Shown here: piece after piece, positions 23,136-32,766 of the stretch
How the letters are laid out: every line of letters begins with the position of its first letter
Position numbering within the stretch: position 1 is the first letter of the stretch
Origin: Geodermatophilus saharensis
GTDB taxonomy: Bacteria; Actinomycetota; Actinomycetes; Mycobacteriales; Geodermatophilaceae
DNA: 64,000 nucleotides
Assembly: GCF_900188205.1 (NCBI RefSeq)
Contig: NZ_FZOH01000001.1
Location: 34,359-98,358, forward strand
Reading direction: 5' to 3'
Position numbers and translations under genes: made by a program
The notes under the pieces: generated by a model
The model's input: the letters and a program-made list of their open reading frames with translations, nothing else
Told to the model about the DNA's origin: nothing
The model's database searches: none

Positions 23136-26100
23136 ATGACGGGGGACGACGCCCTCAGCGGCGCCGCCGGTGGCTTGCTGCAGGTACTTCGCCCGGGTGC
23201 GGTGCTGCGCGGCCTGGCCGGCCCGGAGCCGGTCACCATCGTGGCCGTCGATCGGCTCACCGACGACGCGGCGAACGTGGCCTACCGCACCGAGTCCGGC
23301 GCGCTCGCCGAGCGGATGGTCTTCGCCGACCAGCTGCCCGGGCTGAGCCCGGTGCAGGCGGGTGCGGCGTTCTCCTTCGCCGGCGACCCCGCCTCGTTCA
23401 AGCTCGCCGCCGAGGCCCGCCGGATGCGCTTGGCCTACCTGTTCGACCCGCAGGCGGCGTTGGGCACCTCGGACGTGGACCCGCTGCCGCACCAGCTGCG
23501 CGCCGTCTACGAGGAGATGCTGCCGCGGCACCCGCTGCGCTACGTCCTCGCCGACGACCCGGGCGCCGGCAAGACCATCATGGCCGGGCTGCTGGTCAAG
23601 GAGCTGCTGATCCGCGGCGACGCCCAGAACGTCATGGTCGTGGCTCCCGGCTCGCTGGTCGACCAGTGGGGCGACGAGATGCGGGACAAGTTCGGCCTGG
23701 ACTTCACCCAGCTGACTAAGGACCAGATCGAGCAGGGCGGCAACCCGTTCGCCCGCGGCGGCCTGTGGCTGGCCCGCTTGGACGTCCTGGCCCGCAACAA
23801 CGACGCGATCCTGGACAAGGCCTGCGAGGTCGACTGGGACCTGGTCATCTTCGACGAGGCGCACAAGCTGTCCGCCACCGTCTTCGGCGGCGAGGTCAAG
23901 AAGACCAAGCGTTACCAGCTGGGCGAGCGGCTGGGTGCGGCCCGCAACACCCTGCTGATGACGGCGACGCCGCACTCGGGCAAGGAGGAGCAGTTCCAGC
24001 TGTTCCTGGCGCTGCTCGACGCCGACCGGTTCGAGGGCGTCGTGCGCGAGGGAACCCGCCGCGTCGACGTCTCCGACCTGATGCGCCGGCTGGTGAAGGA
24101 GGAGCTGCTCCGCTTCGACGGCACGAGGCTGTTTCCCGAGCGCCGCTCCTACACCGTCCAGTACCCGCTGTCGGACGCTGAGGCGGCGCTCTACGCCGCG
24201 GTCACCGACTACGTGCGCGACCAGATGAACCTGGCCGACCGTCTGCAGGACCAGGACAACCGCCGTCGCGTCGCCGTCGGGTTCGCCCTCACCACCCTGC
24301 AGCGCCGGCTGGCCTCCAGCCCGGCCGCGATTCACCGCTCGCTGGAGCGCCGCCTACACCGGCTGCAGAGCGAACTCCGCGAGGCTCGCCTGGGCCTCGC
24401 GACCAGGCCCGTGAACCTCGAGGTCGACGCCGATAACGTCGACGAGCTCACCGACGAGGAGCGCGAGGCGCTGGAGGACACCGCCGTCTCCACCGCCACC
24501 GCGGCCGCCTCGATCCCGGAGCTGGAGACCGAGATCGCCGCGCTGAGGCTGCTGGAGGAGCAGGCCCGGGCGATCCGCAACTCCGGCTCCTACTCCAAGT
24601 GGAACCGGCTGCGCGAGACCCTCGACGACGCCGCGCCGATGCGGGATGACTCCGGCGCCCGCCGCAAGGTCATCATCTTCACCGAGCACAAGGACACCCT
24701 CGACGACCTCACCGCGCGGCTGCGCAACCACCTCGGCCGCGACGACGCGGTGGTGACCATTCACGGCGGCACCCGCCGCGAGGACCGCAGGAAGGCCCAG
24801 GAGACCTTCCGCACCGGCGCCAGCTGCGTGTTCCTGGTCGCCACCGACGCCGCCGGCGAAGGCGTCAACCTGCAGAACGCCCACCTGCTGATCAACTACG
24901 ACCTGCCGTGGAACCCCAACCGCATCGAGCAGCGGTTCGGCCGGGTGCACCGCATCGGCCAGCACGAGGTCTGCCACATGTGGTCCCTCGTGGCGAAGGA
25001 CACCCGCGAGGGCGACGTCTACGCCCGGCTGCTGGAGAAGCTCGAGCAGCAGCGCAGCGCCCTGGGCGGGCGCGTCTACGACGTGCTCGGCCAGGTCTTC
25101 GAGGGCACCTCCCTGCGGGACCTGATGATCCAGGCCGTCCGGGACGGCGACGCCCCCGAGACCCGGGCGCGGCTGTTCGAGGTCGTCGACGCGCACGTCG
25201 GCGACGGCATCCGGGACCTCCTCGCCGCCGACCAGCTCGTGCCCACCGCGCTCACCGGCAGCGACATCGAGCAGGTGCGCCGGGAGATGGACCGCGCGGA
25301 GGCGGCCCGGCTGCAGCCGCACCACGTCGAGGCCTTCTTCGCCAACGCCTTCGCCGACCTCGGCGGCAGCCTGCGCGTTCGCGAGCAGCACCGCTACGAG
25401 ATCCGGTCGGTGCCCGCGGCGATCAAGGACCAGGACCGGATCATCGGCCGGGGCACGCCGGTCGTCGGCGCCTACTCCCGCGTCGCCTTCGACCGCGCCC
25501 ACGTGCGGGTTGAGGGCCATGCCGCGGACGCGACCCTCATGCACCCGGGGCACCCGCTGATGGCCGCGGTGCTCTCGCTGATCGGCGACCGGCACGGCGA
25601 CACGCTTCGCCACGGCGCTGTGCTGGTCGAACGGCACGACGCGGCCGTGGACCCGTACGTCGTCTGCCTGCTCGAGCACGAGGTCACCGACGGCCGCGCC
25701 GACGCGACAGGTCAGCTGCAGGTCATCTCCCGGCGCGTTCAGTACGTCCGGCTCGACCCCGACGGGACCGTCAGCCCGATCACCCAGACGCCGATCCCGA
25801 ACCTCGACCCGCCCACCGATGAGGAGCGCGACGCCGCCCAAGACGTCCTCAAGCAGCCGTGGTGCCAGGCCAGCGACCTGGACCGGCGCATGGTCGCCTA
25901 CGCCTCGGCAACCGTCGCCCGGGCACACGTGGAGGCAGTCACCGCTGTCACCCAGGAGCGGGTCGACAAGACCAAGCGCCTGGTGCGCGAGCGTCTTCAG
26001 CGCGAGATCAACTACTGGGACCGCCGCGCCGGCGAAATCCGCGAGAACGAGCGCGCCGGCAAGCGCAGCCGCCTTCCCGCCGATCAGGCCCAAGCGCGCG

Positions 26101-32300: not shown

Positions 32301-32766
32301 GGTCGCCGAGCCGCCGAGCACCGTGAGCGGAACCGGACTCATCGTCGACCCCGCCGCGGCGCAGGCACAGATCGCCGAGGAACAGGTGGCCGTGCGTGCG
32401 GACGTCGCCTTTCCCGACGGGGTGGTGGTCGACGTCGACCAGCACGGGGCGGGCAGCCGGTCCACTGGTGGGCAAGCGCGTCCGGAAACCCCGGGGGTGG
32501 GCGCCTCCGTTGGCGGGCAGGGCGGTGTGTCTGTCGCGAAGGCCACGCGGTTTCACGCCACGAAGGCGCTCGATCCCAGCCGACCGGTCCGTGACGTGAG
32601 CGTCATCAGCGACGAGATCCTCACGCCGCTGTCGACCGCAAGCGCGCATGTCCGCATCACCATCGACATCGAGAGCGCCGATCTCGACAAGCTCAGCCCC
32701 GACCAGATCGCCGCGCTCAAGGAAAACCTGACCACCCTGGGCTTCGCGGACTGGAACGTCGAGTAG
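29368..32766 (+). CDS. HEPN-DUF499 AAA-type ATPase
   Basis: A 1132-residue protein starting at ATG 29368 on the last base of the DUF1156 stop. Residues about 1-130 (MIDLLTRKYGETWQ, then SYLFWVLDKQWNSLF, SALWDARNMWAHKGA) match the Swt1-like HEPN domain found on DUF499 proteins. From about 235 it is the DUF499/COG1483 ATPase: MTTFGGGKTHSE near 247-256 (Walker A) and VILIDEWVAYL near 360 (Walker B). A glycine-rich linker (about 1015-1055) precedes a short C-terminal domain. In family members the ATPase is thought to power recognition or translocation in a methylase-helicase complex. It ends 13 bp before a strong terminator hairpin and about 215 bp before the tRNA gene. Confidence 0.85.
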   Translation: MAGLSNKERVGRVLDTVAAGLGPWMIDLLTRKYGETWQAQVRAAAGATPREFGDNIDDPSYLFWVLDKQWNSLFRNHASHEERRCVSALWDARNMWAHKGAARFSDEQTERVLSDGEHLLRRVGAVARADEVDELRRELRRIRFEKDQQQYQAAAERQLSVRLNTGGLPAWRDVVEPHDDVAHGTFQLAQFAADLRQVAAGIARPEYGDPVQFFERTYITRGLRYLLSQTLQRLNGVGGEPVIDLMTTFGGGKTHSEIAVYHLAGGTPAESLLGIAEMCQQAGVAGIPAGVNRAVIVGNDFSVLGTEKSDGTVVNTMWGELAWQLGGNKAFAAVARYDSNGVPPPTTELADLLAAYAPCVILIDEWVAYLRQLYSRGTEQPYPAGTFDAHQTFAQSLTEAVKAVDTALLVVSLPASDSVRDMGDGLLDNTHEIGGTPGLEALRSLRSVIHRVETPWQPATVQESYEIVRRRIFKPLVGDGARGRDLVVAKFEDHYRRHGGTVPSEVLQPQYRDVMKAAYPIHPELFARLYQDWSTLERFQRTRGVLRLMATVVHALWVRGDQSPLIMPASIPLEDTKVFEEITSHLDDPWKPIVDADIAGFGSTADVIDREIPLLGKTMAAKRVARVVFLGTAPNVSKSARNGDNTPIHGIEQKRVVLGATYPSDNPAHVVDALRQLGDRGKYMNRDHDRYWLSLQQTVSRMVQELADGYDVTEVQAELIATLREENDRGVFARVHRFPEGTADVDDEPTAALVIFGLDRPHTRKANSVAADAAREFLARRGGQPRMHKNALVFLAPDVDRIDALDSNLRRKMAWESVKRRVRELNLDQHNISVVESRLTQAVQAVADTIRETYKWIIVPYQDLGASDIQLEPIIMNGTGTLVERVTKKAQSTEFVLNSFAPSLLRQQIDRLKLWKNEPHIQVDTLSGYFTQYLYMPRVRDHEVIRTAVRHMGEVLLPEMDGLAYADGFEDGRYRGLTVAEPPSTVSGTGLIVDPAAAQAQIAEEQVAVRADVAFPDGVVVDVDQHGAGSRSTGGQARPETPGVGASVGGQGGVSVAKATRFHATKALDPSRPVRDVSVISDEILTPLSTASAHVRITIDIESADLDKLSPDQIAALKENLTTLGFADWNVE

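What the first reader, a model, noticed from the sequence alone, without database searches (positions are those of the whole stretch)
23136..32766. Helicase / DUF1156 methylase / HEPN-DUF499 operon next to a tRNA hotspot
Three genes overlapping by 1-4 nt form a full putative anti-phage or modification system. A Swt1-like HEPN domain on the ATPase could give an RNA-cleaving effector. The system lies directly upstream of the tRNA where a second defence-carrying element is inserted.
Basis: partly seen in the sequence, partly recalled or inferred. Interest (0 to 1): 0.6.

Follow-up and report, generated by a model that had tools for sequence, protein, structure and literature searches.

The report
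Hma-type phage-defence operon beside tRNA-Lys
Three tightly packed bacterial genes form a known kind of probable anti-virus system that marks the cell's own DNA and cuts foreign DNA, with an added RNA-cutting domain; it is a well-preserved but not unusual example, sitting in an island inserted at the front end of a tRNA gene.

Summary
Three genes, 23136-26642, 26639-29368 and 29368-32766 (overlaps 4 and 1 nt), encode an SNF2 helicase, a DUF1156 methyltransferase and a DUF499 ATPase with an N-terminal Swt1-like HEPN domain. They score as HmaA, HmaB and HmaC of PADLOC's Hma system, also named 'Type-1 BREX-related (BR)'. The HEPN-DUF499 fusion beside an SNF2 helicase with its own nuclease was described in 2013, and in 2026 in 1370 of 2446 taxa. 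So it is a new member of a known kind.

HEPN R-x4-H is kept in 46 of 47 aligned proteins that hold the domain. A model of HmaC matches solved BrxC; the HEPN model's top structural match is yeast Swt1, suggestive only. The operon belongs to a small actinobacterial/plasmid sub-lineage (8 members found) with a changed DUF1156 signature.

It lies in a 42.2-kb island that appears inserted at the 5' end of tRNA-Lys and was not seen there in 20 relatives. A separate 18.5-kb element occupies the 3' end (28-nt repeat). Phage protection, methylation and RNase activity are untested.

The parts
23136..26642 (+). HmaA: SNF2/DEAH helicase with C-terminal NOV_C PD-(D/E)XK nuclease (aa 1047-1134; D1077...E1090-V-K1092)
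26639..29368 (+). HmaB: DUF1156 amino-methyltransferase (DPFCGGGS at 111, DPPY at 521, divergent region about 151-500, probably target recognition)
29368..32766 (+). HmaC: HEPN_Swt1 (aa 12-124, RNMWAH at 93-98) fused to DUF499/BrxC-like AAA+ ATPase (Walker A 247-255, Walker B 360-365)
29401..29739 (+). HEPN_Swt1 domain of HmaC (aa 12-124), predicted metal-independent RNase
32778..32832 (+). stable hairpin after the operon, terminator-like but without a T tract
32978..32986 (+). right-hand copy of the 9-bp repeat CCGGGCCTC = 5' end of tRNA-Lys; right edge of the 42.2-kb island (left copy at G000:C10:25115-25123, outside the window)
1..32979 (.). window part of the 42.2-kb island that carries the operon (TIR-TPR 532-3573, E1-E2 14739-16697, tyrosine recombinase 16914-17777, gp88-like 22194-22940)
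32980..33054 (+). tRNA-Lys (TTT), apparently used as integration site at both ends
33025..51560 (.). separate 18.5-kb element at the tRNA 3' end (28-nt repeats 33025-33052 and 51533-51560; integrase 32986-34341 -, type IIG enzyme 38928-43043, PLD-SNF2 helicase 43047-46424, trypsin/TPR 46882-50646 -)

Best explanation
This is a complete, probably functional Hma (Type-1 BREX-related) defence system. Shown by sequence: three overlapping genes; an amino-methyltransferase (HmaB) with a conserved core and a fast-diverging middle region; a BrxC-like AAA+ ATPase (HmaC) with an N-terminal Swt1-type HEPN domain bearing R-x4-H; and an SNF2 helicase (HmaA) ending in an intact PD-(D/E)XK nuclease motif. 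Inferred: HmaB methylates a motif in the host DNA as a self mark, chosen by its divergent middle region; HmaC assembles the complex on DNA and uses ATP to report unmodified DNA; HmaA then moves along and cuts it. HEPN active sites form between two domains (recalled), so ATP-driven pairing of HmaC could bring two HEPN domains together and switch on RNA cleavage as a second, growth-arresting effector. The operon most likely came in with a 42-kb defence island that integrated at the 5' end of tRNA-Lys.
For: PADLOC HmaA/B/C 1387/660/876 bits; Pfam HEPN_Swt1, NOV_C, DUF1156, DUF499. Of 61 other loci (56, 5), 43 hold recognisable A, B and C, and in 41 of these the order is A-B-C on one strand. R-x4-H in 46 of 47 aligned HmaC rows that hold the domain, window included; D...E-V-K in 42 of 44 HmaA rows, the other two being frames without that part; DPPY in 52 of 52 HmaB rows. 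HEPN under purifying selection, dN/dS 0.05-0.19 in 8 pairs, none from the window's own sub-lineage. HmaB residues 151-500 are 20-66% identical to four sister copies against 56-86% in the other complete 50-residue blocks. HmaC model: the only PDB hits at E<=0.001 are three BrxC chains; HEPN model: best VIA match is yeast Swt1, Z 7.5. Literature: PMC8565338, PMC12839542, PMC3710099.
Against: No experiment on this operon. Z 7.5 is within the range that chance helical matches reach, and an unrelated F1-ATPase chain is tied at Z 7.3; Foldseek's own HEPN hit was not significant. PADLOC's HmaC profile does not cover the HEPN part, and its HmaB profiles match only from position 137-138 in the best stretch. 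HmaB is not the only divergent part: HmaC 1001-1050, largely a low-confidence stretch in the model, is 10-28% identical to the sister copies. HmaB's GC3 (0.667) is far below that of HmaA (0.938) and HmaC (0.893), so the methylase may have another history than its partners. One HmaC relative (L036) has lost the HEPN histidine, and a 9-row clade has no HEPN, so HEPN is not essential to the system. In 2 of 43 loci (L011, L012) the methylase lies after HmaC on the other strand, and in 25 of the 41 ordered loci more than 500 nt separate at least two of the genes, so tight overlap is not universal. No promoter-like site was found upstream.
Confidence: 0.8

Rival explanations
1. A restriction-modification-like system in which only the helicase nuclease acts; HEPN is a regulatory or RNA-binding module, not an RNase.
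For: NOV_C is present with and without HEPN; a HEPN-less clade of 9 rows keeps the rest; eukaryotic Swt1's HEPN is described as possibly inactive (PMC3710099, passages).
Against: R-x4-H, the feature lost in inactive HEPNs, is kept in 46 of 47 rows, and PMC3710099 lists this bacterial group as active.
Confidence: 0.3
2. HEPN is the main effector: abortive infection by RNA cleavage, with methyltransferase and helicase serving as sensor.
For: HEPN conserved and under purifying selection.
Against: The helicase nuclease motif is kept in 42 of 44 rows, the other two lacking that part of the frame; PMC12839542 reports an experimental study in which the helicase-nuclease gave defence (seen through that paper only; the study itself was not held).
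Confidence: 0.15
3. A housekeeping or epigenetic methylation locus, or a decaying relic, not defence.
For: No functional test; methylases can be regulatory.
Against: A close HmaC is found in 1 of 26 same-genus genomes, the window's own, in an island with other defence-like genes; relatives on 137 plasmid records; all catalytic motifs looked for are intact.
Confidence: 0.05

Closest known systems
Hma system (PADLOC; Payne et al. 2021, PMC8565338)
   Same: Same three proteins in one operon; HmaA and HmaC profiles matched over nearly their full length, HmaB from position 137 of 973 on.
   Different: PADLOC's HmaC match starts after the HEPN domain. Payne et al. call HmaB an m5C methylase; the DPPY motif here points to an amino (N6-A or N4-C) methylase.
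Type-1 DUF499-centred BREX-related (BR) system (Rakesh & Krishnan 2026, PMC12839542)
   Same: ATPase + DUF1156 methylase + SNF2 helicase with C-terminal PD-(D/E)XK nuclease; HEPN-fused DUF499 reported in 1370 of 2446 taxa.
   Different: Sub-lineage with a changed DUF1156 signature: GT[IL][RK]N[LM]HKWFAP in 8 of 8 members, against an HP...WW form in all 37 others with that stretch readable; 10 further methylase rows are cut or split there.
HEPN-AAA+ (Ava_2192 type) R-M systems (Anantharaman et al. 2013, PMC3710099)
   Same: Swt1-family HEPN fused to DUF499 ATPase, SNF2 helicase with DUF3883 REase (I take this to be Pfam's NOV_C; recalled) in the operon.
   Different: Nothing defining that I could see in the passages read; this is another example.
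BREX (BrxC/PglX/PglZ)
   Same: HmaC model matches solved BrxC (E 1e-5).
   Different: No PglZ, BrxB, BrxA or BrxL seen among the genes scanned; helicase nuclease in place of PglZ.
Type-2 BR system (PLD helicase, DUF3780)
   Same: DUF499 and DUF1156 proteins.
   Different: NCBIfam's anti-phage DUF499 and DUF1156 models, which I take to be of this type, reach 152 and 85 bits against cut-offs of 1200 and 1000; no PLD domain on HmaA; no gene between the three.

Membership tests
Hma / Type-1 BR | Helicase, methylase, ATPase genes adjacent, same strand | tested here: met
Hma / Type-1 BR | HmaA, HmaB, HmaC profiles | tested here: met
   (1387, 660, 876 bits)
Hma / Type-1 BR | C-terminal active PD-(D/E)XK nuclease on the helicase | tested here: met
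   domain and motif only, activity untested: NOV_C; D1077, E1090, K1092; 42 of 44 rows
Hma / Type-1 BR | DUF1156 helical domain on the methylase | tested here: met
   46.9 bits, cut-off 24, with a divergent signature
Hma / Type-1 BR | BrxC-like AAA+ core in the DUF499 protein | tested here: met
   Walker A/B; BrxC hits
Hma / Type-1 BR | N-terminal TUDOR on the helicase; C-terminal RRM on DUF499 | not tested
   no search was made for these parts on their own
Hma / Type-1 BR | N-terminal HEPN (optional feature) | tested here: met
   74.7 bits; R-x4-H
Hma / Type-1 BR | Protection from phage; HmaB-dependent methylation | not testable with these tools
   needs experiments
Type-2 BR | HKD/PLD nuclease on helicase, DUF3780 gene in the locus | tested here: not met
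   no PLD domain in HmaA; overlapping genes leave no room for DUF3780 within the operon; NCBIfam cut-offs not met
BREX | PglZ and BrxC (DUF6079) present | tested here: not met
   DUF499, not DUF6079, in HmaC; no PglZ among the window and island genes scanned (not every frame was scanned)
HEPN RNase (Swt1-like) | Family profile and R-x4-H motif | tested here: met
HEPN RNase (Swt1-like) | HEPN fold | tested here: inconclusive
   all-helical model; best VIA match Swt1, Z 7.5, with an unrelated chain tied; Foldseek not significant
HEPN RNase (Swt1-like) | RNA cleavage | not testable with these tools
   needs biochemistry

The most novel reading that the evidence does not exclude
One tRNA-Lys(TTT) gene serves as a two-sided landing site: elements recombining in its first 7 nt and elements recombining in its last ~28 nt both load methylase-helicase defence operons. 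The Hma copy here belongs to a distinct actinobacterial/plasmid sub-lineage whose methylase N-terminus was rebuilt, and whose HEPN domain is switched on by ATP-driven pairing of the BrxC-like ATPase, giving one system a DNA-cutting and an RNA-cutting arm.
Probability: 0.3. Interest if true: 0.5.

Novelty: new member of a known kind. Interest (0 to 1): 0.27.

Why it matters
It is a clean, complete example of a widespread defence system whose mechanism is still inferred, with both a DNA nuclease and an RNase motif intact; inactivating each separately would show which arm protects. The tRNA-Lys locus suggests how two unrelated elements can bring defence systems to the two ends of one gene.

Tried and rejected
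Considered and rejected: Type-2 BR (NCBIfam cut-offs not met, no PLD); BREX (no PglZ seen); DISARM (DrmD scores 377 bits against 1387 for HmaA); HEPN as a substitute for a missing DNA nuclease (NOV_C is present in HEPN-bearing and HEPN-less systems alike); Hma as part of the 18.5-kb integrase element (it lies on the other side of the tRNA, outside the repeats). No HmaC relative was found in 50,697 phage records at E <= 1e-5, and no solved structure matches HmaC by sequence at E <= 0.001. The 9-bp repeat CCGGGCCTC by itself is expected by chance about 1.2 times in L097 (20 kb) and 3.4 times in the window; its weight comes only from its place, exactly where the native upstream sequence ends. Between the two edge stretches compared (1.9 kb and 460 bp) there was no other match longer than 13 bp, and no second tRNA copy in the island longer than 14 bp. 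The recombinase that moved the island was not identified: the tyrosine recombinase at 16914-17777 is below Pfam's cut-off, though a PHROG integrase family matches with 48 bits. Of the relatives' inserts at the 5' side I saw the same left edge (CCGGGCCTC) clearly only in G001; the other left edges printed did not show it, so recurrence at exactly this base rests mainly on the shared right ends. Foldseek gave no significant HEPN match. A paper search on tRNA 5'-end integration returned nothing, so I make no claim on whether two-sided tRNA use is in print. The experimental Hma paper (PMC11232893) is not held; I know it only through PMC12839542.
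Full report
What is there. The three frames are at the stated places and overlap as stated: HmaA ATG 23136-26642 with AAGGAG ten bases upstream, HmaB GTG 26639-29368 (4-nt overlap), HmaC ATG 29368-32766 (1-nt overlap). The operon is followed by a strong hairpin at 32778-32832 (z -5.8 against shuffles). No sigma-70-like promoter was found upstream; the consensus used is a poor guide in a window of 71.7% GC.

What the proteins are. PADLOC names them HmaA (1387 bits), HmaB (660) and HmaC (876). Pfam finds a helicase core plus a C-terminal NOV_C domain in HmaA, DUF1156 in HmaB, and HEPN_Swt1 (aa 12-124, 74.7 bits) plus DUF499 in HmaC. Motifs are intact: GAGKT and DEAH in HmaA, and in its NOV_C domain D1077...E1090-V-K1092; DPFCG and DPPY in HmaB; GGGKT, VILIDE and RNMWAH (R-x4-H) in HmaC. 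DPPY placed after a DPFxGGG motif with a long insert between is, from general knowledge of methylases, that of an N6-adenine or N4-cytosine enzyme, not of an m5C enzyme.

Relatives. A scan of 84,980 species, with peptide patterns taken from the window's own protein and so leaning to its kin, gave 56 loci; five places from genus and order relatives were added. Of these 61 loci, 43 hold recognisable A, B and C; the order is A-B-C on one strand in 41, while in L011 and L012 the methylase lies after HmaC on the other strand. The other 18 lack one or more, some because their contig ends. In 25 of the 41, more than 500 nt separate two of the genes, so the window's tight overlaps are not universal. 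I aligned 58 HmaC proteins, window included, leaving out four rows (L055, short; L062-L064, divergent or HEPN only). Eleven rows do not hold the HEPN stretch: nine belong to a clade without it, L029 is cut by its contig end, and L061 has no match before residue 292. Of the 47 that do, 46 keep R-x4-H and one (L036) has lost the histidine. R93 is invariant in 38 of 38 domains aligned. On a tree of 54 of the 58 rows (L029, L050, L057, L061 left out as incomplete) HEPN presence needs a single change. HEPN evolves under purifying selection like the rest of the protein: dN/dS 0.05-0.19 in eight close pairs, not all independent and none from the window's sub-lineage. In HmaA, 42 of 44 rows keep the nuclease motif, among them seven from HEPN-less systems; the other two (L054, L055) are split or short frames without that part. 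So the RNase domain is an addition to, not a replacement of, the DNA nuclease. HmaB has DPPY in 52 of 52 rows.

Structure. An AlphaFold model of the HEPN part (38-row alignment, pLDDT 88) is all helical. Foldseek's weak top hit is a HEPN protein (E 0.32, not significant). The VIA second look ranks yeast Swt1's C-terminal domain first (Z 7.5), with other HEPN proteins (2hsb Z 7.3, sacsin 3o10 Z 6.1) near the top, but an unrelated F1-ATPase chain is tied at Z 7.3 and the tool warns that helical bundles reach such Z by chance. A full HmaC model (pLDDT 84.9) has only three PDB matches at E <= 0.001, all BrxC of BREX. That supports, independently of the published sequence work, that HmaC is a BrxC-like ATPase.

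A distinct sub-lineage. The window's HmaC falls with four actinobacterial copies on a long, fully supported branch; one more genome (G282) and two plasmids (Rhodococcus, Microbacterium) are placed there by identity of 59-61% and by the signature, not by the tree. In all eight, the DUF1156 signature reads GT[IL][RK]N[LM]HKWFAP, whereas 37 other methylases with that stretch readable have an HP...WW form, 35 of them followed by [RK]-x-P; ten more rows are cut or split there. Within the five-copy set, HmaB residues 151-500 are 20-66% identical to the window against 56-86% in the other complete blocks of 50 (the last nine residues range from 33 to 89%), as expected of a target-recognition region; HmaC 1001-1050 is also divergent (10-28%). 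HmaB's GC3 is 0.667 against 0.938 (HmaA) and 0.893 (HmaC); in the four sister copies HmaB is also the lowest of the three, by little in L002. In a draw of 396 genomes of the phylum, 30 had an HmaC relative at E <= 1e-50, two of them of this sub-lineage, the window's own genome included; 21 of the 32 matches listed begin within the first 90 residues.

Where it sits. HmaC has a close match in 1 of 26 same-genus genomes, the window's own; two others (G003, G020) have only distant matches. I took 15 kb around tRNA-Lys from 20 of the 60 relatives (17 of the same genus, 3 of the same family). Their 12 kb upstream of the tRNA gave no match over 120 bp to the window; instead all 20 match G000:C10 within 22.4-25.1 kb, left of the window, where their conserved upstream gene lies. 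In G000 the native upstream sequence GGTCTGGGAGACTCGACGGCGC, found directly before the tRNA in G002, runs on through the first seven tRNA bases (CCGGGCCTC, ending at C10:25123) and then stops. The island follows for 42.2 kb up to the intact tRNA at C10:67338, which begins with the same CCGGGCCTC (its first two bases lie just before the tRNA). The 9-mer alone proves nothing; its position is the argument. The island also holds three TIR-TPR proteins, an E1-E2 protein and a tyrosine recombinase. In seven of the 20 relatives other inserts end at the same base with a shared 18-bp end (up to 2 mismatches); in G001 the left edge is again CCGGGCCTC, but I did not see this clearly in the other left edges printed. 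So the 5' end of this tRNA is probably a recurrent site. The 3' end is a separate one: 28-nt repeats at 33025 and 51533, DNA similar to the window's integrase gene next to the tRNA in five of the 20 relatives, and partial tRNA copies nearby in several more genomes.

How it probably works. Shown: composition, motifs, conservation and relation to BrxC. Inferred: self-marking by HmaB, sensing by the HmaC ATPase, cutting by HmaA, and a HEPN RNase arm switched on when two HmaC protomers pair. Solved BrxC has an ATP-bound dimer (title of 9zdx), and HEPN RNases act as dimers (recalled). [quoted passage not shown] the pairing switch is my own inference.

Known or new. HEPN fused to DUF499 in an operon with R-M components and an SNF2 helicase carrying a REase domain is in PMC3710099 (2013; passages). 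The triad was named Hma in PMC8565338 (2021; passages; 1,638 instances, 26 phyla; the passages I saw name other systems as the ones phage-tested) and Type-1 BR in PMC12839542 (2026; passages and section 29), which counts HEPN fusions in 1370 of 2446 taxa and cites an experimental study of the helicase-nuclease that I could not read. Plasmid records already name homologues 'Swt1 family HEPN domain-containing protein'.

Noticed in passing
window 33025-51560: 18.5-kb element at the tRNA-Lys 3' end (28-nt repeats) with integrase, type IIG enzyme (904 bits to a PADLOC REase_MTase_IIG model), PLD-SNF2 helicase and a trypsin-TPR protein (a STAND match is below Pfam's cut-off).
   Followed up: partly
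L097:5825-8890, L097:9628-12516, window 532-3573: Three separate TIR-TPR proteins in the same island upstream of Hma (plus a TPR protein at L097:4273-5757), a possible tandem TIR defence cluster.
   Followed up: no
window 14739-16697: E1-E2 (ThiF plus weak Prok-E2_B) protein of the kind found in anti-phage conjugation systems.
   Followed up: no
L079, L080, L082, L087, L088, L089, L090 just upstream of tRNA-Lys: Inserts of about 2-6.3 kb at the tRNA 5' end share an 18-bp end (GGTGGGTGCAGAGAACCC, up to 2 mismatches); in L087 it occurs inverted at the other edge, and in L082 and L089 a second copy beside GGGCCTC suggests stacked cassettes. The genes scanned there in L082 (2) and L089 (3) encode MEDS-STAS or MEDS-HATPase proteins. 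The mobility mechanism is unknown.
   Followed up: partly
L099:8221-17113 and L101:5301-14292: Divergent helicase - methylase - DUF499-like triads in two same-genus species (HmaC profile only 129 and 105 bits); the one in G003 lies between its tRNA-Lys and later copies of the tRNA end, i.e. probably in an element at the same tRNA.
   Followed up: partly
window 26639-29368: HmaB has much lower GC3 (0.667) than its operon partners (0.938, 0.893), suggesting a different history or constraint for the methylase.
   Followed up: partly
L003:3-1241: A second protein with a Swt1-like HEPN match (33 bits) on the opposite strand near the Hma operon of Arthrobacter oryzae.
   Followed up: no
L122:6325-8999: On the Microbacterium plasmid HmaB is annotated as two overlapping frames while HmaA and HmaC are whole; HmaB also falls in two frames in L014, L047 and L054.
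   Followed up: no
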